64,000 bases of DNA from Legionella steelei (GTDB lineage Bacteria > Pseudomonadota > Gammaproteobacteria > Legionellales > Legionellaceae). The translations under genes and the position numbers were made by a program. The DNA lies in NCBI RefSeq assembly GCF_001468005.1, contig NZ_LNYY01000021.1:124637-188636 (forward strand), given 5' to 3'. The notes beneath the pieces were generated by a model. That model ran no database searches. It was not told the origin of the DNA and was given only the letters and a program-made list of their open reading frames with translations. This document shows, piece after piece, positions 4,482-50,451 of this stretch (the stretch's first letter is position 1; each line of letters opens with the position of its first letter).

Positions 4482-6428
4482 ATGCCTGCTTTTTTCCGTA
4501 TTAAAGATATCAAGAAAGGCCCCGCATCACGGTCAACTGCGCATGTGGCATACCTCAACGCCATATATACTCCCCCCAATCAAATCGATCCTTCCTACAA
4601 AGTCATTTATAAAAAAAATAAATACGGTCGCTCCGAGCTATCGCGCCTTGAAGTAATGTTTGGCCAATTGGCGCGTCTTTTTCTATTGCCTGATCTGACG
4701 CCTTCTAATCACTTAGTGCTTGATGAGGGCAATAATGTTCTTGGCTTAGCAGTCGAACATCTTTGCCATCTCATTACCAAAAAAGAAGGTCTTGATCATA
4801 ATTTTTATGCTTTAAAAGACACTGATGAGGGCTGGGATTTCGTCCCTAAAAAAAGGAATAATCCCGCCAAAATACCGATTCATTTTCTTGATAAACTTCC
4901 TCAAGGATTTTTCGCGCTCTTAGTTGAAGAAGAAGAGGCCGGGCGTATAACTCTTGATTATGAATCATTGGCCAGTATCTTTGCGACTTCGTATACCTTA
5001 GAAGAGGATGATTTACATAAGGGAAATTATGGTTTCTATTTAGTCGAACGCAATGGTAAGCCGCATGCGGTATTTTTCAAAATCGATCATGATTTAATGT
5101 TTGTTGACAGCATCATGGGATTTCAAACTCGCAGGCCTTTTCATTTATTCCATGGTCCCAATGCTTTTGACATTACCGTATATGATTTGGAATCGCTGAT
5201 GTGTTTAACCAATTCATCTAACGCCTATTGGCCTACGAAATTTGGTTATGTGTCTAATCCTTTGGACAATAAGGAGTACCACAGTTATGACGAGATCGAT
5301 GCTTTTTCGCAGTTAAGTGATAACCCACAATTTGTCAGGGCAAAATGGAAATCCTTTTTTAAGCACATTTTAATGCCCAAAGAACTCATTAAGCGGACCT
5401 TACAGGAATGTGCTGATATGAATAGGGCTTCAGAGCGTGCCCAAGTTGCCTTAATGAATCAAGCCACCAGTGCACGACTTGCACGCTTGCGTGCTGCATT
5501 GTTTTCGAGCGCCAAATTTCGTGATTACTTGGAGCAATTAGATGCAGAACAAATCCGTATTTTAGTGCAAGAAATCATTCCGCCGCAGTGGGCAACAGAG
5601 GTGCTACGACAACAAATGCAGAAATCGATTGCTTCTTATCAAGAGTTATCTAAAAAAGACGATGGATTTGATCCAGAAGACACGCCATTACATATTGCAA
5701 TTAAGCTTGGCGAATATCGCTATGAAGAAACCTTAGGCATGTTTGCCGAATTCATTAATGTACCTAATAGTGTCGGCAAGACTCCTTTAGATATCGTATT
5801 GGAACGAGTGCAAGCGGGGTTAGTGGATAGTGAGGATGTACAGAACAATGGTTTCTTAATTGCCAAGCATTTGTTAGCCAACAAAGCACAGTATACAGAA
5901 GAATACGAAGAGGAGCTTTTGCTATCTGTTAAAGCATACACGTTTAAAAATCCTTATTTAGAAGGAATAAAAGTGAATATGAGTTATGGAGCCTTCAAAG
6001 AGATTTTACGAGATATAGGTGAAGATCATCGCTTTGGTTTGAAGTTTCAAAAGAATTTGGCCATGGAGTGCATGAAACATTTTATCAAGGTGAATGAGGG
6101 ATGCCCTGGCTTTGCAGACAAACTAGAACAATTAAAAGACGATATCAATGGCGACTCTCCTGAGGAAGAAGCAGCCCCTGTGAAATACATCCGCCAGTTA
6201 CGCAGTAGATACTGGATTATTCGCCAATTGCGCGGATTATATGGTTGGACTTCAAGCCAATGGGAAATAAATACTATGATTAACCAAGCGATGGAACGCA
6301 AAAAAGCTAAAGAACCCAATTCTTTTTCCTTCTTTTCTGGCGATGAATCTGATGATGAAGCTGGCGATGAAATCGAAGCAAATCTAATCGATTCAGGGCC
6401 AAGTCAGGAAGCATCTGTTGCCGTGTAG
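4482..6428 (+). CDS. Ankyrin-repeat protein with kinase-like motifs, candidate Dot/Icm effector
   Basis: The protein has 648 residues and no signal peptide. An N-terminal region of about 200 residues contains SELSRLEVMFGQLARLFL (51-68), then DLHKGNYGF (177-185) and KIDHDLMF (200-207). This spacing resembles the catalytic loop (HxGN) and metal-binding Asp of HipA- or phosphoinositide-kinase-like enzymes. Residues about 395-445 contain ankyrin-like units (EDTPLHIAIKLG, VGKTPLDIVLE). The C-terminus is acidic (DESDDEAGDEIEAN), like the E-block signals of Dot/Icm substrates. Ankyrin effectors with lipid-kinase activity are known in Legionella (LegA5), so this is a plausible family, but the match here rests on motifs only. 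The stop codon TAG is the first part of a REP. No good ribosome binding site precedes the ATG, so the start is moderately certain. Confidence 0.6.
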   Translation: MPAFFRIKDIKKGPASRSTAHVAYLNAIYTPPNQIDPSYKVIYKKNKYGRSELSRLEVMFGQLARLFLLPDLTPSNHLVLDEGNNVLGLAVEHLCHLITKKEGLDHNFYALKDTDEGWDFVPKKRNNPAKIPIHFLDKLPQGFFALLVEEEEAGRITLDYESLASIFATSYTLEEDDLHKGNYGFYLVERNGKPHAVFFKIDHDLMFVDSIMGFQTRRPFHLFHGPNAFDITVYDLESLMCLTNSSNAYWPTKFGYVSNPLDNKEYHSYDEIDAFSQLSDNPQFVRAKWKSFFKHILMPKELIKRTLQECADMNRASERAQVALMNQATSARLARLRAALFSSAKFRDYLEQLDAEQIRILVQEIIPPQWATEVLRQQMQKSIASYQELSKKDDGFDPEDTPLHIAIKLGEYRYEETLGMFAEFINVPNSVGKTPLDIVLERVQAGLVDSEDVQNNGFLIAKHLLANKAQYTEEYEEELLLSVKAYTFKNPYLEGIKVNMSYGAFKEILRDIGEDHRFGLKFQKNLAMECMKHFIKVNEGCPGFADKLEQLKDDINGDSPEEEAAPVKYIRQLRSRYWIIRQLRGLYGWTSSQWEINTMINQAMERKKAKEPNSFSFFSGDESDDEAGDEIEANLIDSGPSQEASVAV

Positions 6429-7628: not shown

Positions 7629-7661
7629 TTTAAGGTTATTTTAAGAAAATAAGTTTAAAAT
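7629..7661 (+). promoter_or_regulatory. PmrA-type box and -10 upstream of the 1214-residue effector candidate
   Basis: Half-sites TTTAAG (7629-7634) and TTTAAG (7640-7645) are five bases apart, fitting the YTTAAK-N5-YTTAAK PmrA pattern. After seven further bases beyond the 20-base box lies TAAAAT (7656-7661), a -10 candidate. The same geometry is seen at 47837-47869 and 47923-47955. PmrA controls many Dot/Icm effector genes in Legionella; binding here is inferred. Confidence 0.55.
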
Positions 7662-7692
7662 AAATACATAATGGTCTGCGGAGTGTTTGATT

Positions 7693-19575: not shown

Positions 19576-20340
19576 ATGCTAAATGAATATTATTTGACTG
19601 ATGATATTGAAGAGCCGGTTCTTGCTAGCAGTGTTTTGTCCTATGTTACTCCCTATGTTTCTGGTAAGCAGTTTCACGAATTAAAAACAGGACAAATTTC
19701 TTGGGAAGCAAAACTGGATCTCTCTAATTTAATGCCAGAGGATGCTCGTCAGGCTTTGTTGGGATTTATTCAAAAACAGGTGAAGAAGAACAAATATTCT
19801 TTGCTTATTGTTCACGGTACACAAGGTGCTACCAATGCTCCTCCACTACTAAAGAATTTAATTAATCACTGGTTGCCGCAAATTGGAGAGGTGGCTGCTT
19901 TTCATAGCGCGAAGCCTAGTGATGGTGGTGTTGGTGCTGTATATGTTTTGCTAAAAAAGGTATCGAATCTTCCCGTACTGACGCGCGCAGAACAAAGCAC
20001 TTCTTTTTTAGTTGTTGAAACTAAAGACATGGAACGACAAAGACGGCTTGCCGAACAGCAAGGTGAACGACGGATAGCACTCGTGAAGGCACGTGAGCAC
20101 TCTAATCAGGAGTCTCAACCTGGTCTTGAAGGTGAGTTACAAAATAGCATTTTACAACATCCTGCTTTAGATAGTCAGCGTTTTGATGGTATTGATTCTC
20201 CTTTAAATCCAGAACCTCCTTTAAATACTGATGCGCGACGTGAATACGATAATGAACGACGTAATCAGGAACAAGAAAAGCAACTGCGCTTAGGTAATAT
20301 GCCGAAATTCACTAATACGCCTAAACCTAGAGGTCCCTAA
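19576..20340 (+). CDS. Degenerate Smr-domain paralog fused to a charged tail
   Basis: The protein has 254 residues. Residues 4-128 align along their length with SmrB of this window (YYL.D...VL, LSY..P, LKTGQISWEAKLDL, PPLLKNLINHWLPQ, AFHSAKPSDGG.GAVYVLLKK). The catalytic DLHG is DLSN at 48-51, losing the active-site His, and HGKGG is HGTQG at 80-84. After residue 130 comes a Gln/Arg/Glu-rich, disordered tail (DMERQRRLAEQQGERR, NERRNQEQEKQLR). The stop overlaps the next ATG (TAATG), so it is coupled to the AnkH-like gene. It probably keeps the fold, perhaps RNA or ribosome binding, but not the nuclease. An effector or chaperone-like role is only inferred. Confidence 0.78.
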   Translation: MLNEYYLTDDIEEPVLASSVLSYVTPYVSGKQFHELKTGQISWEAKLDLSNLMPEDARQALLGFIQKQVKKNKYSLLIVHGTQGATNAPPLLKNLINHWLPQIGEVAAFHSAKPSDGGVGAVYVLLKKVSNLPVLTRAEQSTSFLVVETKDMERQRRLAEQQGERRIALVKAREHSNQESQPGLEGELQNSILQHPALDSQRFDGIDSPLNPEPPLNTDARREYDNERRNQEQEKQLRLGNMPKFTNTPKPRGP

Positions 20341-21743
20341 TGACAATTGCAAGTGACATAATCAGCCATCGAATGCCTGATTTTGAAGCTTATCTTCGAG
20401 CAGGAGAATCGTTGGATGACATTGATGAATACGGTTTTACACCCTTAATCGAGTGCGCTATCACACGTCAACTCGAAATTGCTGAACAATTAATTGTGCG
20501 TAAAGTCGACGTAAATAAAGGCGATGTGACCGGACGTACTCCCCTGCATTGGGCCGTAGATAATAATGATGTCGAGTTGGCAGAATTATTATTAAATAGT
20601 GGCGCAGACCCTAATGCTTATACACGTAATGGACTTTCGATATTGGTTTATCCTGTATTACGCAATCAAGAACCTCTCAAACATTTACTCTATCGCTATG
20701 GAGCGAAGCTTGATTTTGCTCTTGATTTTATTAATGGCAAACTCATTGGGCATCGTTTTGAATTACAAGGAGATGTCGATATTGTTAATGCCAAGGGTGA
20801 ATTTATTGAACTGGATTATGAAGGGTTTATCCTTGAATTTACTGTTGCTGTGATAAGAGATGCGCTTAGACGTTTTATCAGCAGCTATTCAACACGTCAT
20901 TTACGCGATTATTTTCCATTGGCGCATGTGATTATCGATGCGTTTGTACTTGCGGAAGAACTGTTACAATATCAACATGTGCCTATTTTAGGGGAACAAC
21001 ACTTTAGACGTCTCAATGAATGTTTAAAGGCCCCAATGCTGATTCTTCCGGCAGCCAGTCGCGGTCATGCCATGGGATTTATCCGCTTTGGTTTATGGTG
21101 GGCTAAAATTGATCGGGGTGAAAACAGCTTACAAGAGGGCAGTGTTAATATCTATAAAATAAATAATCCTGAAGCTTTGAATGCGAGTTTTCTACAAAAT
21201 TTTCTTTATAAAAAACAACCAAGACGTTATTTTCATCAGGTGATTAATCAACAATTAGGATTGATTCCCGTTGCAAAAATGCCAATTAGTTCGCAAATTA
21301 GTGGCAATTGCTCTTGGGCCAATATACAAGCGATTATAGCAGTTGCTTATGCCATTCAAGAATTGGAAAAAAACAATTTTTTAAATCCCGATCCCGCGAT
21401 GTTCTTTTATAATGAATGGGTATCCTGGGATAAGGAACGTGCCATAGATGAATGCATCCAGCGTTTTTATTTGGCCAATCCTGTTCGTAAAGCCAGTATT
21501 GCGGCAATGTTAGGTGGTGTTTTATATCAGGCCTGTAATTATGAAAACAAACGGCATTTGGAAATGGCGGAGAAAATACTCCGAATTCTCACTTTACCTG
21601 ATTATGAGTATATTTTAAAAAGTTACCTTGAAGAGTACTGCATCAAACGATTAACCAAAAAAGGTAATAATTTACTGAAAATTCTCGATGATTGCGGTAT
21701 CAATCCCAATATTGGTGTTAATCCTATTGCGACAGGGTTGTAA
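20340..21743 (+). CDS. ankH: AnkH/LegA3-like ankyrin protein with cysteine-protease-like domain
   Basis: The protein has 467 residues; L. pneumophila AnkH is about the same length. Ankyrin repeats fill residues about 30-125 (YGFTPLIECAITRQLEIAEQ, GRTPLHWAVDNNDVELAELL, GADPNAYTRNG). The C-terminal half has a papain-like set: RGHAMGFIRF with His 243, KIDRG with Asp 258 and SGNCSWANIQA with Cys 324. AnkH is a core Dot/Icm effector of the genus, with ankyrin repeats plus a cysteine-protease-like pocket, and binds host LARP7. The order of residues here (His before Cys) is like other circularly arranged effector proteases. It starts one base before the upstream stop ends. The assignment rests on architecture and length, not on an alignment. 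Confidence 0.75.
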   Translation: MTIASDIISHRMPDFEAYLRAGESLDDIDEYGFTPLIECAITRQLEIAEQLIVRKVDVNKGDVTGRTPLHWAVDNNDVELAELLLNSGADPNAYTRNGLSILVYPVLRNQEPLKHLLYRYGAKLDFALDFINGKLIGHRFELQGDVDIVNAKGEFIELDYEGFILEFTVAVIRDALRRFISSYSTRHLRDYFPLAHVIIDAFVLAEELLQYQHVPILGEQHFRRLNECLKAPMLILPAASRGHAMGFIRFGLWWAKIDRGENSLQEGSVNIYKINNPEALNASFLQNFLYKKQPRRYFHQVINQQLGLIPVAKMPISSQISGNCSWANIQAIIAVAYAIQELEKNNFLNPDPAMFFYNEWVSWDKERAIDECIQRFYLANPVRKASIAAMLGGVLYQACNYENKRHLEMAEKILRILTLPDYEYILKSYLEEYCIKRLTKKGNNLLKILDDCGINPNIGVNPIATGL

Positions 21744-29778: not shown

Positions 29779-31317
29779 TTAGCTAGAGGGAGCTACAGCA
29801 GCAGCTATTGATGGACTGGATTCATGCTCTAGTGATCTTTGTTTGTCTAACCAATCAACTAAGCGGCTGCGGTATGCTTTAAAAAACAAGGAAAAGCGAT
29901 TGGATGAACGAATCTGGGCACTTTCACTGCTTTCAAACAATCTCGTTACTTCTTTTGATGTAGCTAATTTCAAATTTAAGGCAATTTTATCTGCATGAAA
30001 GGCGATGTCAGTCAGCGCACAATTTCTTAATTTGAAGGAGCCCTCAATAATTTCACCTCGTTCTCCTTCGATTATGAAATCAGTAAGCGTAAATGGATGT
30101 TTTGCGAAATAAGTACTGTTTTTACCATTCGATGCGATCAGTTCTTCTTTGGCGCCAGCGGCAACAAGCTCTATACATAAATCATCAAAGTGATAAAATC
30201 TTGCCCAGTGAAGTGCGGTCATCCCGTGATTGTCAGCCTGATTTACATCACAGTGTAACTCAAGCATTTTTTGCAAAATTTGCTTTGCAGCTTCTTTATC
30301 GGCCAGCTTACAAGCTAAAATCAAAGCGGTATTGCTAAAAGAGGTTGCTAAGAGCAGTTTCGAGTTTGCCATTCTCAGTGCATAGTTTAGGTTGTAATGA
30401 TTTCGGTCAATAATGGCTTGATGTAATGGGGTATTGGCTGGTTCTATATCATCATAACTTTCCATGTCTCGACGAGAAAGTTGGCAAAATAGAGCTAGTT
30501 TTTCTAACGTTTCTTGGCGTGAGCTAACTGCTTTTATCTCATCTTGGTAGATATTGAAAAAAGTTTTAATAGTGTCCAAATTAGTTTCTAATAAGGGTAG
30601 GGTGCGTTTTAGAACACCGGGTAATAGTAAATCTTGGCTCTGTAGATAGCTTAGGAACAATTGCAGTTTATCTAATTCACTTTTATATTTTAATTTAGGG
30701 AGCATTGCTTCGATTATATCTTTTCGTAACAGATCAACTTGCTTCATGAATTTAAAAAAATTATCAAGGAGTTGTAGATCTTCTGCCGAGGGATACGCTG
30801 TACTTAATAATTCTGCTATTAAAGGAATCAAATCAGGAGGTAGTGTTTTACAGAGTCCAAATAGTTCAAAAATTAAATGCCAATCACTATGTTCTTCCGT
30901 ATATTCCTGGTCACCCCTGCTCATCGTAAAGCGTAGTGGAGTGACCTTGGTTATTTGGGTATATCGTTCTAGCTTATTTTTTTTGGCTAATAAGCAGATG
31001 AGTTCATAAATTTTATCGTCGCCTGCAGAGGACATCCTAATTGCCTGAATCATTGCCTTGCGTGTTTCTGGAGTTGTATCACTAGCCACATATATTTGCA
31101 GGGCTCTCATAGGGTCAGAAAAACGTTTTGTTTTAATGAATGAAGCTAAGTGAAGAAAATCAGTGAACTGATCGAGTGCTACTCCTGCCGAGACGTTATG
31201 AAGCTCTACATCTATTGCTGCATCAACCTCATCAAAACGCACGTCGGGTGAGTTAATTAAGGCAGTAAGCTTATCACTAAGAATGATTTTTTTTACCTGC
31301 AATTGTGATGATGCCAT
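29779..31317 (-). CDS. Ankyrin-repeat protein, candidate Dot/Icm effector
   Basis: The protein has 512 residues, no signal peptide and no membrane segment. Residues 1-290 are helical and carry no motif I recognise. Ankyrin repeats lie at about 294-390 (ANTPLHQAIIDRNHYNLNYA, FSNTALILACKLADKEAAKQ, HGMTALHWARFYHFDDLCIE). The C-terminus is Ser/Glu/Ala-rich (LEHESSPSIAAAVAPSS), suited to a Dot/Icm signal. The junction ahead of the ankyrins (LSRRDMESYDDIEPANTPLH) resembles that in the 4482 protein (LSKKDDGFDPEDTPLH). It is divergent from lolC across a region with two palindromes. GAGGGAA on this strand precedes the ATG. Confidence 0.7.
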   Translation of the reverse strand: MASSQLQVKKIILSDKLTALINSPDVRFDEVDAAIDVELHNVSAGVALDQFTDFLHLASFIKTKRFSDPMRALQIYVASDTTPETRKAMIQAIRMSSAGDDKIYELICLLAKKNKLERYTQITKVTPLRFTMSRGDQEYTEEHSDWHLIFELFGLCKTLPPDLIPLIAELLSTAYPSAEDLQLLDNFFKFMKQVDLLRKDIIEAMLPKLKYKSELDKLQLFLSYLQSQDLLLPGVLKRTLPLLETNLDTIKTFFNIYQDEIKAVSSRQETLEKLALFCQLSRRDMESYDDIEPANTPLHQAIIDRNHYNLNYALRMANSKLLLATSFSNTALILACKLADKEAAKQILQKMLELHCDVNQADNHGMTALHWARFYHFDDLCIELVAAGAKEELIASNGKNSTYFAKHPFTLTDFIIEGERGEIIEGSFKLRNCALTDIAFHADKIALNLKLATSKEVTRLFESSESAQIRSSNRFSLFFKAYRSRLVDWLDKQRSLEHESSPSIAAAVAPSS

Positions 31318-44767: not shown

Positions 44768-47734
44768 TTAAACTTGGAATTGTCTGTTGAGCTCTTGCAT
44801 TTGTTCTAACAATCGAGCTTCTTGCTCTTTCAGTTTACTCAACTGCATAGTCCCTTCTTGGATAGCTTGCTTCAGTTCAACTATAGATTTTTCTAGTTGT
44901 TCTACTTCCTCTCCAAGTTCCTGAATAGTTTGCTTGACAACTGTTGTTGACGTTTCGAGCTCTGCTTGTTTAAGTTTTATTTTAACCCACGTTAAAAACA
45001 GAACCGGATTGCGAGCATATTCAGTTGGAAGTTGGGCGCCTTTTTTTCTTCCTGGTACAATTTCTAATTCCTTTTCAAGCCTATCAAGTTCCCTAAGAAT
45101 AGATTCTGATTCACTAGCACCTACTTCGGCAACTTTAGCCTGAAGTTCTTTTTTCGTACTCTTGTTTTTTTCTTTGTCCTTTAATAGGCCATCGAGTACT
45201 TCCAGTTTTTGAGAAAGCTCCACAATCTTTTGATGTAAAGGGACACTTTGTTGGAACAAGGTAAAAGTTTGGAACCCTCTTATTACACTTTGCAGTGTAA
45301 CAATCGCTTTCGCCTCTTTTTTTGCTTGTTCCTCTCGATTCAGCATCACTTCTCTTGTTTTTGCGGCTGAATCTTTAGGATCAATGATATCATCTACAGT
45401 AAGAACGAGACCTTTATCTTGATATCGCTTATCAATGTATTGTTGAGCACGAGCTGAAACATCTTTATTTCGTACGCAACGTCCAGTTGCCTGAGGTCCT
45501 GACAGTATTCCGTTAATCGCATTGATATTCGACTCAACAACTGGCGAATGACTATTGATAACTTGCACATTTAAGATATCTCGAATACTCACACCTGTAG
45601 CAATTACTTCATCTGCAACAATATGTGTTCTCAGACCAACTTCAATTTGCGCAAGCTGCTCGTCGATTATAGACTGTTTCGTCTTCATATCAATTGCACT
45701 GGCATAACCTTCAGTTGCTTTTAAGGCAACTAAATCAACAGGAGTAGCATGAGTTACCACATCAGAAATAGGATTTGACGTTTTGATCTTAGCTACCATT
45801 GCTTCTGCTCTGTCCAAAATTAATTTAACCATTGCTTCTTTTTGCGCAGTAGGCAATTTGGAAATAGGTGGTCCTAATTTCGTCAAAGCTGTATTTAATT
45901 TTATCCTATCTGCGTCTTCACAGGCTTTAAGCTTGCTTAAAAACGGAGGAGGTATCTCACCATCTTTTGTTTTGTATTTCTTGATATGCTCATCGCATTC
46001 TTTTAAATATTCATCAAGCTTGTGAGATCTGTCTTTCTCAGCAATATCAGTGAACTTTTCATTAAAGATAAGTGCAAGAGCAAAGCTATTGACCGTTCTT
46101 TGAATGTCTTTTTGTTGTTCAATATCGATATCATTTTTTAAATTCACTGCACGTAAAGGAACTTGTCTACGTAATTCCAGTTCATCGACAGCACCAAATT
46201 TTTTGGCCAATTGCACTCTTGCTTGAGATTCAGACTCTTTGCGGAGCTCTGCTACTTTCCCTTGATATTTTTCCAGGGTAGGTCTATCTCCATTCGCAAG
46301 CTTCTGATAGGTTTCAGCTAATTTCTCACGAGTTGCTTGGTCATCAGAAAAACCCATGTTGCGTTGAGCACGAATGCGGTTCAACTCTAAAGCTTGTTCA
46401 ATGGCTTGTTGTTGCGCCACAGCGTCTTCAATTCCCATTGTCGCTTTTTTAATTTGTGCTTTTAATTCGACCGGATCAACATAACCAACCATTCCCTCTT
46501 GGAGATAATAATCATCAAAGTAATGAATCACTGCTTGATCAATCAAATCTTTTTCTTCTAAATAAGCTACTTCAGGCTTAATCGGACGAATTGTTCCTAA
46601 CTCAATTGCAGCACCAAGACTTAAATCATCTAAAGGCGTACCAGTAAAGAGATCATACAATTTCGAAGTTGGTGTCGCTGTTAATGCTAGAATTGAATTG
46701 CGAGCTTTCAATCTTTGCAAAATTTGTGTATCTTCTTCAGTAAATGTATGGCGATGGCTTTCATCAATTAACACCATTGAATCTTTTATTTCGCCAGCGA
46801 TGATCTTGAATAATGGATGTTCCGCCTGCAAAACAACTTGATCAAAATGCTCAGTACCTGCAATTACTTTGGCAAAATATGCTCTAATTTTTTGTTTGTC
46901 TTCCTCTTCCATGTCACTTAAATCGTCCTTCAAACCGTCCCAATCCACATCAACGTTGGGTTTAATCGTTTCCAAAGTAAATACGGTAGGAACATGTGTG
47001 CTGCCTCCGACCTTACCTGCACCTAACATTTTTTGGGTTTCAGATGATTGCTGATCAACTAGTGTCTTATCAGGAACAATCATGACCGTGCGCCCAACTG
47101 CCTGTGCAATACCTGCCATTACAATACTTTTGCCTGAACCTGTTCCCATGACGGCAAGACGTTGTTCTTTTCCTGCGGCCAAGCTATCAGAAAATTTGGC
47201 TAATATTTCATTTTGATATGCATGAGGAACAAACGATTTAGTATCAACAGCTAAACCTTTCTTAGTTACTGCGTGAAGATCACCTACTCTATCATAGGTT
47301 AATTTAACAGTGGCGGAATGGTCATGATCGAAGAATAATTTACCTCTGCTCACTTCTGCATCTAATTTGCTGGTTATTTTAACCGTGTATTCTTGTTGCT
47401 CGTCTTTGATACCATCGTAAGTAAAATCTACTGTATATACAGCACCACCAATTGTAATCGCAGCTTCAAGATGTAACTTTTCGTCTGCTTTCTTAGTCCA
47501 TTGGCTTCTTTCTTCTCCGGGCTTGCCTGCTTTTGCCAAAATTGCTTTGACAACATTTCCAATCTTAGGATCCTTTTTTGAGTTTTCTACAGCAATAATC
47601 TCTTTTGCTGAACCTACTGTAACCACTGCTCCGTTGGTTACAACTTCTTTTAATAAATGAACTGCTGCAACTGTGTCTGTGTAATCCCTAAGATCTGCAA
47701 TCTGTTTTCTAACAATTTCGCTGTTGGCGCCCAT
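44768..47734 (-). CDS. Superfamily 2 helicase-like protein with coiled-coil tail, candidate effector
   Basis: The protein has 988 residues. The helicase core shows PHAYQNEIL (170-178), Walker A GTGSGKS (197-203), DESH (324-327), TATPT (352-356) and motif VI QATGRCVR (748-755), so ATP binding and hydrolysis are plausible. It is type III restriction/ResIII-like, but no methylase or nuclease neighbour is present. Between motifs III and VI is a long Lys/Glu-rich helical insertion. Residues 811-988 form a coiled coil with an IQ-like motif (LQSVIRGFQTF, 814-824) at its start. GGGGAG precedes the ATG, and two PmrA-type promoters lie upstream. This suggests a Dot/Icm substrate that acts on host nucleic acid or protein; the target is unknown. 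Confidence 0.7.
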   Translation of the reverse strand: MGANSEIVRKQIADLRDYTDTVAAVHLLKEVVTNGAVVTVGSAKEIIAVENSKKDPKIGNVVKAILAKAGKPGEERSQWTKKADEKLHLEAAITIGGAVYTVDFTYDGIKDEQQEYTVKITSKLDAEVSRGKLFFDHDHSATVKLTYDRVGDLHAVTKKGLAVDTKSFVPHAYQNEILAKFSDSLAAGKEQRLAVMGTGSGKSIVMAGIAQAVGRTVMIVPDKTLVDQQSSETQKMLGAGKVGGSTHVPTVFTLETIKPNVDVDWDGLKDDLSDMEEEDKQKIRAYFAKVIAGTEHFDQVVLQAEHPLFKIIAGEIKDSMVLIDESHRHTFTEEDTQILQRLKARNSILALTATPTSKLYDLFTGTPLDDLSLGAAIELGTIRPIKPEVAYLEEKDLIDQAVIHYFDDYYLQEGMVGYVDPVELKAQIKKATMGIEDAVAQQQAIEQALELNRIRAQRNMGFSDDQATREKLAETYQKLANGDRPTLEKYQGKVAELRKESESQARVQLAKKFGAVDELELRRQVPLRAVNLKNDIDIEQQKDIQRTVNSFALALIFNEKFTDIAEKDRSHKLDEYLKECDEHIKKYKTKDGEIPPPFLSKLKACEDADRIKLNTALTKLGPPISKLPTAQKEAMVKLILDRAEAMVAKIKTSNPISDVVTHATPVDLVALKATEGYASAIDMKTKQSIIDEQLAQIEVGLRTHIVADEVIATGVSIRDILNVQVINSHSPVVESNINAINGILSGPQATGRCVRNKDVSARAQQYIDKRYQDKGLVLTVDDIIDPKDSAAKTREVMLNREEQAKKEAKAIVTLQSVIRGFQTFTLFQQSVPLHQKIVELSQKLEVLDGLLKDKEKNKSTKKELQAKVAEVGASESESILRELDRLEKELEIVPGRKKGAQLPTEYARNPVLFLTWVKIKLKQAELETSTTVVKQTIQELGEEVEQLEKSIVELKQAIQEGTMQLSKLKEQEARLLEQMQELNRQFQV

Positions 47735-47836
47735 AAGAATCTCCCCATAGAATATTTTTTAAATATAAAAATATAATCAAGGTCCTTATAAATTATATTT
47801 AGAAACATAGGTGATTATCGAACCTAATGTTTTCCG

Positions 47837-47869
47837 ATTATACATAATTAATATTAAGCAACCATTAAG
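47837..47869 (-). promoter_or_regulatory. PmrA-type box and -10, proximal promoter
   Basis: On the minus strand CTTAAT-GGTTG-CTTAAT with ATT after it (47869-47850) fits YTTAAK-N5-YTTAAK and the Legionella form cTTAATatT-N2-cTTAATatT. Seven bases further is TATAAT (47842-47837). It drives toward the helicase-like gene, whose ATG is 103 bases away. Confidence 0.65.
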
Positions 47870-47922
47870 TACTTTTATTGTTTAATTGGATAACCTAGTA
47901 CACAGCTTACTTAATGTTGGCA

Positions 47923-47955
47923 ATTATACAAAAAGAATATTAAGTGACTATTAAG
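47923..47955 (-). promoter_or_regulatory. PmrA-type box and -10, distal promoter
   Basis: CTTAAT-AGTCA-CTTAAT on the minus strand (47955-47936), then seven bases and TATAAT (47928-47923): the same geometry as the proximal copy, 86 bases away. The two look like a duplication. Confidence 0.62.
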
Positions 47956-48195
47956 CGTCTTTATTGAATGTAAATTGATCACTTTGTGGTGTGAGTGTTG
48001 CAGGTAGCTAGATAAATAGGGTATAGAACTATGCTTCTGACAGCGGGCCATTGTCGTTATTTCTTCATATAGGGTATTTAAAATATATTTATTTGATAAT
48101 ATTTTGACCTTGGTGCCCCTTTTGATGATAAAATCAGAAATAATAGATAAAGATTTTTTATAGCTGTCAAACGACACAGGATAGTGAGGCGGTAT

Positions 48196-49251
48196 ATGGC
48201 ATATATTAAGTTTAATCAAGTAACTGAAGCGAGAAGTAAAATCATGGCACGCTTAAGTCAATTAGGTTTAGAGCCTGATGAAGACATGATGCACACTCTT
48301 GAAGCGAATCCTCAATATCTGAATCGATTGACTTCTTTATTCAAGGCATTAAAAAAATATAATATTGCGCTTAATGATAAACTCCATAAGACTATTGCAA
48401 GTAACGCTGCTAATGCGGGCTATGTGGTTCATCTATTAGAGTTTATGCATGAAGCTGGCATTGACACTGCAATTATTGCACCCGAGGTTTTGTTTCAAGT
48501 TGCAAAGTCAGAAACCACTCTCATTCATGGGATTCGTCAACTTATCGCTCATAATGCAATTGGTACAGCCAATTTAAAACTAATGTTTTCTTATCCTGAG
48601 CAATCGTACTTACTTGCTGATTTAATCATTAACTTTCAAGCACATGCTTATCCTACTGAAAAAATAGTTGAAAAGCTGGGTAAATTTCATTCAAAAAAAA
48701 TGAATACAGTGATTGAGTTGCTTACTCTACTTTTAAATAAAAATCTCTATTACAGCGAATGTTTGGACATTTTTTTAGCTCAGCAAGAGCATATAAGTAA
48801 TATTTATGAGGGAGCGAAAAAGCTTGCCGTAGAAAATAAGTTGGCAGCAAGTTATTTAGATACCATCGGAAAAGCGCCAAAAAATGCCAATATTCTCGCT
48901 AATATTATTTTGCTACTACATAGCACCTCACTTATTGATTATAAAAAAACAGAGGATCTTTTAATTGCAAGTAGATTGGGAGCTGGCGCGTTTCATTTGT
49001 TGATGCACTTGCAGCAAGCAGGTATCTTAGATGCAGAGCATTATAAAAAAGTGTGCCAGCATAATCCGATACTGAATAAACCTGAAGTCATCGAATCTTT
49101 AAGTAATCTTCCTCTATTCGTTGCATTTGAGAAAGGCGAGTTAGAACAAATGTTGATTTTAATAACTAAAGAACCTGGTTCTGATACCGATTGCAATGAA
49201 TTGATCGAAATGATCCAAAAGCATGTTTTAACAATTACACCCCATTTGTAA
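48196..49251 (+). CDS. Helical-repeat protein, paralog 1, candidate effector
   Basis: The protein has 351 residues from ATG 48196, with GAGG six bases upstream. It is wholly helical. Units of about 35-40 residues repeat a pattern like P-x-x-x-x-x-L-x-x-L-I-x-x-L (NPQYLNRLTSLFKALKKYNI, YPEQSYLLADLIINFQAHAY, QQEHISNIYEGAKKLAVENK, APKNANILANIILLLHS). No signal peptide, membrane segment or enzyme motif is seen. It aligns along its length with the next gene. HEAT/ARM-like scaffold proteins are common among Dot/Icm substrates, so that role is a guess by context. Confidence 0.65.
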   Translation: MAYIKFNQVTEARSKIMARLSQLGLEPDEDMMHTLEANPQYLNRLTSLFKALKKYNIALNDKLHKTIASNAANAGYVVHLLEFMHEAGIDTAIIAPEVLFQVAKSETTLIHGIRQLIAHNAIGTANLKLMFSYPEQSYLLADLIINFQAHAYPTEKIVEKLGKFHSKKMNTVIELLTLLLNKNLYYSECLDIFLAQQEHISNIYEGAKKLAVENKLAASYLDTIGKAPKNANILANIILLLHSTSLIDYKKTEDLLIASRLGAGAFHLLMHLQQAGILDAEHYKKVCQHNPILNKPEVIESLSNLPLFVAFEKGELEQMLILITKEPGSDTDCNELIEMIQKHVLTITPHL

Positions 49252-49323: not shown

Positions 49324-50451
49324 ATGACTGTGACAGACAGTAGTACAAATAGAATGATTACCAGCTTAAAACCTGGTACCGCCACAGCAATAACTAATTC
49401 ACCTGGTGCTTCCTTTGTGGAACGTTTGAGAAAATTAAATCTAGGAAATGATCCACAAATGATAGCTCTTCTTGAAGCAAACCCTGATTATGGTAACCGT
49501 TTGATTTCTTTATTTAAGGTCCTTAAAGAGCTCAAAATTGACTTGACTGATGGACTTGCTCGACTCATTGCAAATAATATTTCTCAAATTGGTAGAGTGG
49601 TCAATTTGCTGGAATTGATAAAAAAAGAAGTAAATATTGATCCCAGAACTCTTTCAATGCCGCTTTTATTTAATGCGGCTCCATTTGATGAAGCTGTTGC
49701 TCAAAGCGTACGTGATTTAACACAGGGAGATTTGCTTGATCCTGATATTTTTAAATTATTGCTTGCTTATCCTGCACAAGCACACAAGATTTCGCAATTG
49801 TTGATTAATCTTCAAGAACGCGCCTATGAGAGCTCCGCTTTAGTAGAGAAACTTAATGCTGTCTCAATTACGGCAGAGCGTATGGATACGGTTATTAATT
49901 TGCTTGATTTAGTATTGGAAAACAACCTCTTTTACCCTGAGATGGTAGATATTCTTCTAAGACAAGAAGCATATATCGATAGAATTTATGAAGGAGCTAC
50001 AAAGCTTATTGCAGAACACTCGCTATTCCCTGACTATTTTGCGATGCTCGAAGCAAATCCGAAAAATGCTAATATCTTCGCTAAAAATATTTTGTTATTA
50101 CGTGATGCACAATTTATTAATTTCTCTAATCCTGAATGTTTAGCCATAGTAAGTCAATTAGGTATTGGTGCATTTCACTTTATGAAAATTTTGCATCGTG
50201 CGGATCAGTTAAATGAAGAAAATTTTGAAATAGTTTGTCAAAAAGATAATATATTAAATCGTGAAGAAGTCATTGACGAATTAAGCCGACTTCCTTTGCT
50301 TACTGAGTTCGATGAGGATGAATTGGAAATGATGTTGTGCTTAGTGGCTCAAACAGAATTGTCTGATGCAGATGTTGAAGGGTTCAATAGCATAATACGT
50401 TACCATCATATTTTTGAAAATCAATGCGCTGCATCTGTAAGTCTCTCTTAA
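49324..50451 (+). CDS. Helical-repeat protein, paralog 2, candidate effector
   Basis: The protein has 375 residues from ATG 49324. After a 30-residue Ser/Thr-rich start it aligns with the preceding protein (NPDYGNRLISLFKVLKELKI, YPAQAHKISQLLINLQERAY, RQEAYIDRIYEGATKLIAEH, NPKNANIFAKNILLL, SQLGIGAFHFMKILHRA). The C-terminal part is acidic (LTEFDEDELEMM). No known domain was recognised. AAGGGA lies ahead of the ATG. The pair arose by tandem duplication and has diverged substantially. Confidence 0.65.
   Translation: MTVTDSSTNRMITSLKPGTATAITNSPGASFVERLRKLNLGNDPQMIALLEANPDYGNRLISLFKVLKELKIDLTDGLARLIANNISQIGRVVNLLELIKKEVNIDPRTLSMPLLFNAAPFDEAVAQSVRDLTQGDLLDPDIFKLLLAYPAQAHKISQLLINLQERAYESSALVEKLNAVSITAERMDTVINLLDLVLENNLFYPEMVDILLRQEAYIDRIYEGATKLIAEHSLFPDYFAMLEANPKNANIFAKNILLLRDAQFINFSNPECLAIVSQLGIGAFHFMKILHRADQLNEENFEIVCQKDNILNREEVIDELSRLPLLTEFDEDELEMMLCLVAQTELSDADVEGFNSIIRYHHIFENQCAASVSLS

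What the first reader, a model, noticed from the sequence alone, without database searches (positions are those of the whole stretch)
47837..47955. Two tandem PmrA-type promoters of identical geometry in front of the helicase-like gene
On the minus strand CTTAAT-N5-CTTAAT-ATT is followed after seven bases by TATAAT, and the same arrangement occurs again 86 bases upstream. The pattern fits the published Legionella PmrA box and puts the box over the -35 region, as in activated promoters. From base composition I estimate that less than one such box would arise by chance in the whole window, so two within 120 bp with the same spacing look like a functional duplication. It links this gene to the effector regulon.
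Basis: partly seen in the sequence, partly recalled or inferred. Interest (0 to 1): 0.75.

Follow-up and report, generated by a model that had tools for sequence, protein, structure and literature searches.

The report
Duplicated PmrA promoter before helicase gene
A Legionella gene for an uncharacterised helicase-like protein carries two nearly identical switch-on sites for the regulator PmrA in a row, and related species have kept this doubling, so the gene is very probably co-regulated with genes for proteins the bacterium injects into its host, which is a new case of a known kind of switch.

Summary
CTTAAT-N5-CTTAAT-N10-TATAAT occurs twice on the minus strand (47955-47923 and 47869-47837), 86 bp apart, and nowhere else exactly in the window; none arise in 100 shuffles. 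The geometry is real genome-wide: 10 hits in the 4.23 Mb genome, all with spacer N10 although N8-N16 was allowed, and 0 reversed controls. In 45 genus genomes there are 184 hits against 6 controls; of the 150 listed, 128 have N10. The promoter stands before 20 of 21 genus copies of the gene. The doubling occurs in 6 of 45 genus genomes, and 6 of 143 in the order, always at this gene, with one origin on the protein tree. Both copies keep all 18 core positions in all six. A PmrA homologue with the expected DNA-reading helix is in the genome. Best reading: two PmrA-activated promoters made by one tandem duplication. Against it: no expression data, and three near full-length homologues lack the box. 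PmrA dependence and effector status are inferred. It is a new member of a known kind.

The parts
47923..47955 (-). Distal promoter P1: half-sites CTTAAT/CTTAAT, linker AGTCA, spacer N10, TATAAT
   Evidence: core kept in 6 of 6 tandem genomes
47837..47869 (-). Proximal promoter P2: half-sites CTTAAT/CTTAAT, linker GGTTG, spacer N10, TATAAT
   Evidence: core kept in 6 of 6 tandem genomes
47735..47836 (-). Leader from P2 to the ATG (102 nt after TATAAT), with a block conserved among homologues
44768..47734 (-). 988-aa DExH superfamily-2 helicase-like protein; putative Icm/Dot effector (effector status inferred)
   Evidence: ResIII E 2.9e-15, DEAD 3.4e-8; GTGSGKS, DExH, TATPT and QAxGRxxR invariant in the 5 sequences aligned

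Best explanation
The two sites are two complete PmrA-activated sigma-70 promoters for the helicase-like gene. A head-to-tail PmrA dimer occupies the two CTTAAT half-sites, stands in for a good -35 element, and recruits RNA polymerase to the TATAAT ten bases downstream (class II activation as for OmpR/PhoB-family activators; recalled knowledge, not shown here). The pair arose once by tandem duplication of an 86-87 bp segment (promoter plus early leader) in the ancestor of six sampled species; both copies have been kept under selection, giving two PmrA-dependent start points, probably for higher or more PmrA-sensitive output. Shown: sequence, geometry, conservation, single origin on one tree. 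Inferred: PmrA binding, activation, two active starts, dosage purpose.
For: Fixed geometry genome-wide: 10 of 10 own-genome hits at N10 with N8-N16 allowed, 0 controls; 184 hits against 6 controls in 45 genomes; of the 150 listed, 128 have N10, 15 N11, 7 others, with 6 to 20 allowed. TATAAT 6/6 at N10 behind a box in 20 of 21 genus copies (17 with core 12/12, three with 11/12), as a conserved island, also in L. waltersii (50% identity) with other neighbours. Tandem pair only at this gene: 6 of 45 and 6 of 143 genomes; one change on the tree, SH-aLRT 99. Core 18/18 invariant in both copies over six genomes against 13/65 and 15/65 flank columns. Distal upstream flank matches single-copy homologues in all six. 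Regulator: L043 is the best of 28 hits to the PmrA model (256.6 bits, next 145.9), is followed by a sensor-kinase-like frame, and its best PDB sequence matches are the two BasR (PmrA) sequences 8jo2 and 4s04, with nearly the same helix NxLEVHIHNLRxK. The Klebsiella/Salmonella PmrA box is two such half-sites 5 bp apart (PMC3973317, passages).
Against: No expression or binding data. Three near full-length homologues lack the box: G024 and G130 and G097 in other genera, so it is not tied to the gene as such. The PmrA candidate is below the curated cut-off of the model (256.6 of 330). The papers that defined the Legionella box are not held. The proximal copy has lost the conserved linker in 5 of 6 genomes. 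The proximal upstream flank shows little trace of duplication (z 1.0-2.4), and downstream matches vary widely (0.3-7.0). The generic promoter scan of the region is not above shuffles (4 found, 3.7 expected), misses P2 and lists another candidate inside the leader (47821-47792).
Confidence: 0.82

Rival explanations
1. Only the distal promoter matters; the proximal copy is a decaying by-product of the duplication.
For: Linker RGTCA, which with the preceding T gives a 4/6 -35-like hexamer 16 nt before TATAAT, is kept in 12 of 12 close single promoters and 6 of 6 distal promoters but in 1 of 6 proximal ones; the two distant L. waltersii copies have ACTCA and AATCA. The generic promoter scan lists the distal site and not the proximal one.
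Against: The proximal core (both half-sites and TATAAT) is 18/18 invariant in six species whose flanks have diverged. The proximal copy sits at -131 to -150 from the ATG, near the -130 to -136 of the 12 close single promoters.
Confidence: 0.2
2. The boxes are read by another OmpR-family regulator rather than PmrA.
For: The genome has at least three other full-length OmpR-like regulators (L044, L045, L046), and box recognition was not measured.
Against: Of these four, only L043 carries the NxLEVHIHNLRxK stretch of the BasR/PmrA structures, and the Klebsiella PmrA site is of the same form; the published copper regulator LciR reads a different inverted repeat.
Confidence: 0.08
3. Chance matches in AT-rich intergenic DNA, conserved only by shared ancestry.
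For: The region is AT-rich and the genomes are related.
Against: Shuffles give almost none; reversed-pattern controls are 0 in this genome and 6 against 184 in the genus; flanks diverged while the core did not; kept with one core mismatch in L. waltersii at 50% protein identity in another neighbourhood.
Confidence: 0.01

Closest known systems
Legionella PmrA regulon promoters (PmrAB two-component system, Icm/Dot effector genes)
   Same: Two direct half-sites CTTAAT with 11-bp period at a fixed distance before TATAAT; resident PmrA homologue; PmrA reported to activate 42 effector genes directly (PMC12239595, passages). The Legionella consensus itself is recalled, its paper is not held.
   Different: Two complete promoters in series before one gene; the tandem pattern searched (30-60 bases between TATAAT and next box) hits no other gene in 143 genomes.
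Klebsiella pneumoniae pbgP promoter with box1 and box2
   Same: Two candidate PmrA boxes about 80 bp apart (-170 and -90 from the start codon; PMC3973317, passages).
   Different: There box2 has a 4-bp linker and box1 was confirmed as the main PmrA box; here both boxes are perfect, each with its own TATAAT.
PhoB-type class II activation (pho box in place of -35)
   Same: OmpR/PhoB-family direct-repeat box with 11-bp period about ten bases upstream of the -10 (recalled, from no call).
   Different: Different recognition sequence and regulator.

Membership tests
PmrA-regulated promoter | Two direct half-sites of the CTTAAT/CTTAAG kind separated by 5 bp | tested here: met
   site definition from PMC3973317 passages
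PmrA-regulated promoter | Fixed spacing to a -10 element shared with other promoters of the genus | tested here: met
PmrA-regulated promoter | PmrA present in the genome | tested here: met
   best hit by over 100 bits, but below the model's curated cut-off
PmrA-regulated promoter | PmrA binding and loss of expression without PmrA | not testable with these tools
   no expression or binding data on hand
Icm/Dot effector (the gene product) | C-terminal glutamate-rich E block | tested here: inconclusive
   17 of 20 complete copies pass a simple test of my own, but 11-47% of internal 30-aa windows of the same proteins pass too
Icm/Dot effector (the gene product) | Translocation into host cells | not testable with these tools
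   none
Superfamily-2 DExH helicase (the gene product) | Walker A, DExH, SAT-like and QxxGRxxR motifs (motif names recalled) | tested here: met

The most novel reading that the evidence does not exclude
Related Legionella lineages raised the dose of one helicase-like putative effector by two alternative routes: tandem duplication of the PmrA promoter (six species, each with one gene copy) or duplication of the whole gene with its own PmrA-type promoter on each copy (side by side in G001, G004, G019). The ancestral promoter keeps a gene-specific linker that the second copy mostly lost, so the pair may have split into one partly basal and one strictly PmrA-dependent start.
Probability: 0.25. Interest if true: 0.5.

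Novelty: new member of a known kind. Interest (0 to 1): 0.36.

Why it matters
It places an uncharacterised helicase-like gene in the PmrA regulon with strong comparative support, and gives a natural experiment on promoter duplication: the same gene with no box, one promoter, two promoters, or two gene copies in related species. It also shows that one strict pattern (box-N10-TATAAT) finds PmrA-type promoters in this genus at about 30 hits to 1 reversed control.

Tried and rejected
Chance: rejected by shuffles and reversed controls. The first tandem search used a wrong gap (35-65) and so missed even the known pair; corrected. The first orientation of loci was wrong for minus-strand matches; redone. 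The AlphaFold model of the protein has low confidence (mean pLDDT 56.2, pTM 0.31, five sequences), so no fold search was made. A profile search against PDB sequences gave nothing at E 0.001. The E-block test does not discriminate. Distant partial relatives in other genera (4 loci of G046, G048, G075) show no convincing box; one weak 10/12 match with TATTAT far upstream in L065 was taken as chance. A remnant of a lost gene copy as the source of the distal promoter was considered; the 86-87 bp period and the leader-like stretch after both copies fit a local duplication better, but it was not formally excluded.

Literature: nine searches. In their listings, and in the passages of nine papers opened (PMC6989116, PMC12239595, PMC6448907, PMC4273665, PMC3973317, PMC4117601, PMC3096851, PMC5714930, PMC12308824; none read whole), I saw no report of this gene's promoter or of doubled PmrA promoters in Legionella. 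The 'tandem promoters' in PMC5714930 is an engineered reporter; the helicase in PMC12308824 is LidB, in another context; the other seven hits were not opened. The key PmrA papers are not held, so this is no proof of absence from print.

Full report
What was checked. The minus strand at 47837-47955 was read directly. In the window, CTTAAT-N5-CTTAAT occurs only at these two places (0.01 expected), and no third exact box-N10-TATAAT exists (0 in 100 shuffles). The looser YTTAAK form has 5 matches against 0.59 expected; with one mismatch allowed, 24 against 13.65.

Is the geometry real? The own genome (4,227,172 bases, 21 contigs) was searched with the box and TATAAT at any of nine spacings (8-16). 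Ten matches were found, all with exactly ten bases between box and TATAAT, and none for the reversed pattern. In 45 genomes of the genus, a similar search (first base C, spacings 6-20) gave 184 matches in 43 genomes against 6 reversed controls (totals). The tool lists 150 of the 184 (those of G001-G037; G000 and G038-G044 are not listed); of these, 128 have spacer 10, 15 have 11, and 7 are spread over other values. Without TATAAT the signal is weaker: 23 box matches, one palindromic site counted on both strands, against 10 controls in the own genome. So the box plus a fixed -10 is a real promoter class of this genus.

What does it stand before? The gene starts 102 nt after the proximal TATAAT and 188 nt after the distal one. 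Its 988-aa product matches ResIII and DEAD helicase families, and GTGSGKS, DExH, TATPT and QAxGRxxR are invariant in the five sequences aligned. No NCBIfam model reaches its cut-off. Of the eight other own-genome sites of this class, seven are followed by a reading frame whose likely start lies about 30-40 nt after TATAAT; for L002 and L005 I took an internal ATG, the L010 start is TTG, and the L001 and L010 frames run off the DNA held. The eighth (L003) has no frame of 50 aa or more starting within 700 nt on that strand. Of the seven products, one has a calpain-type peptidase match, one a GNAT match and one a pyridine-nucleotide oxidoreductase match; four have no Pfam match. None matches a named effector model. 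That fits an effector-like regulon but does not prove it.

Conservation. The protein has matches in 17 of 45 genus genomes, giving 21 copies. In 20 of 21 a box stands before the gene with TATAAT 6/6 at spacer 10 (17 with 12/12 core matches, three with 11/12); the copy in G024 has none. The alignment shows the box and -10 as an island. The first three keep largely the same neighbours (the 161-aa frame was not listed in L. wadsworthii); L. waltersii has other neighbours but keeps the box with one core mismatch. In the order (143 genomes) 42 have some match, mostly weak; two more near full-length homologues exist in other genera (G130, G097), and neither has a box (best 9 of 12 within 400 nt). 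So the gene was brought under this control, or lost it, during the history of the family.

The doubling. A pattern for two boxes 55-85 bases apart hits 6 of 45 genus genomes, once each, always at this gene; a stricter pattern with both TATAATs hits the same 6 of 143 in the order. The six form one group on the protein tree (SH-aLRT 99, one change, quick method, no bootstrap, one row partial). The period is 86 or 87. Both copies keep 18 of 18 core positions in all six, while 13 of 65 and 15 of 65 flank columns are invariant. Against mononucleotide shuffles, the distal upstream flank matches that of the 12 close single-copy promoters in all six (z 6.7-8.2); distal downstream z is 1.7-6.7 and proximal downstream 0.3-7.0; the proximal upstream flank barely matches (1.0-2.4). 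This fits duplication of a segment that begins shortly before the box and ends in the early leader. The linker is RGTCA in 12 of 12 close single and 6 of 6 distal promoters but in only 1 of 6 proximal ones; the two L. waltersii copies have ACTCA and AATCA. With the preceding T, RGTCA forms a weak -35-like hexamer, and the generic scan reports the distal site and not the proximal one, though that scan is not above shuffles (4 found, 3.7 expected). The two promoters may therefore differ in basal activity.

The regulator. The best of 28 own-genome hits to the PmrA model NF007928 is L043 (256.6 bits; next 145.9; curated cut-off 330 not reached). A sensor-kinase-like frame follows it. Its best PDB sequence matches are the BasR entries 8jo2 and 4s04, with the stretch NxLEVHIHNLRxK shared; that BasR is PmrA, that these chains are from Klebsiella and that this stretch is the recognition helix are recalled. 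Klebsiella PmrA binds a box of two half-sites, CTTAAT and CCTAAG, head to tail, and Salmonella boxes have half-sites 5 bp apart (PMC3973317, passages). PmrA is reported to activate 42 L. pneumophila effector genes directly (PMC12239595, passages) and to be present in all Legionella species examined (PMC6989116, passages). The paper that defined the Legionella box could not be read.

Mechanism and verdict. Most likely two PmrA-dependent class II promoters in series, born by one tandem duplication and kept. The sequence facts and conservation are shown; binding, activation, two active starts and the benefit are inferred. Dose is a guess: the six tandem-promoter genomes each have one gene copy, while G001, G004, G019 and G043 have two, which is suggestive but too few to test. 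As a kind this is known: a PmrA promoter before a putative effector gene. The perfect doubling is a small, well supported twist.

Noticed in passing
window 7629-7661 (+): A near-match box (TTTAAG-N5-TTTAAG-N10-TAAAAT, one mismatch) stands just before the 1216-aa reading frame at 7687; a possible third PmrA-type promoter in the window.
   Followed up: no
L003:1501-1533 (own genome C19:129662-129694 +): A perfect box-N10-TATAAT overlaps the end of a 498-aa frame with only a convergent gene nearby downstream, followed by an inverted repeat (CTTATCATGAATG / CATTCATGATAAG); look-alike sites are listed in G004, G005, G019, G025, G033. Possibly a small-RNA promoter or a coincidence at a gene end; no terminator-like site and no Rfam hit.
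   Followed up: partly
window 47781-47794 (-): A leader block (AATTTATAAGGACC here, around ACAATGACC in many single-promoter homologues), ending 47 nt before the ATG, is conserved among homologues; role unknown.
   Followed up: no
window 48184-49251 and 49324-50451 (+): Two adjacent, similar-looking reading frames of 355 and 375 aa, divergent from the helicase gene, with no Pfam or NCBIfam match at cut-off; similar frames keep this place in L. wadsworthii, L. sp. PATHC038 and L. steigerwaltii.
   Followed up: no
window 4482-6428, 20340-21743, 29779-31317: Homologues of the effectors AnkK/LegA5, AnkH/LegA3 and AnkQ/LegA10, all above the NCBIfam cut-offs.
   Followed up: no
G001, G004, G019 loci (L018/L032, L017/L029, L022/L028): The helicase-like gene is itself present as two neighbouring copies, each with its own box promoter (11/12 core in the second G001 copy).
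   Followed up: partly
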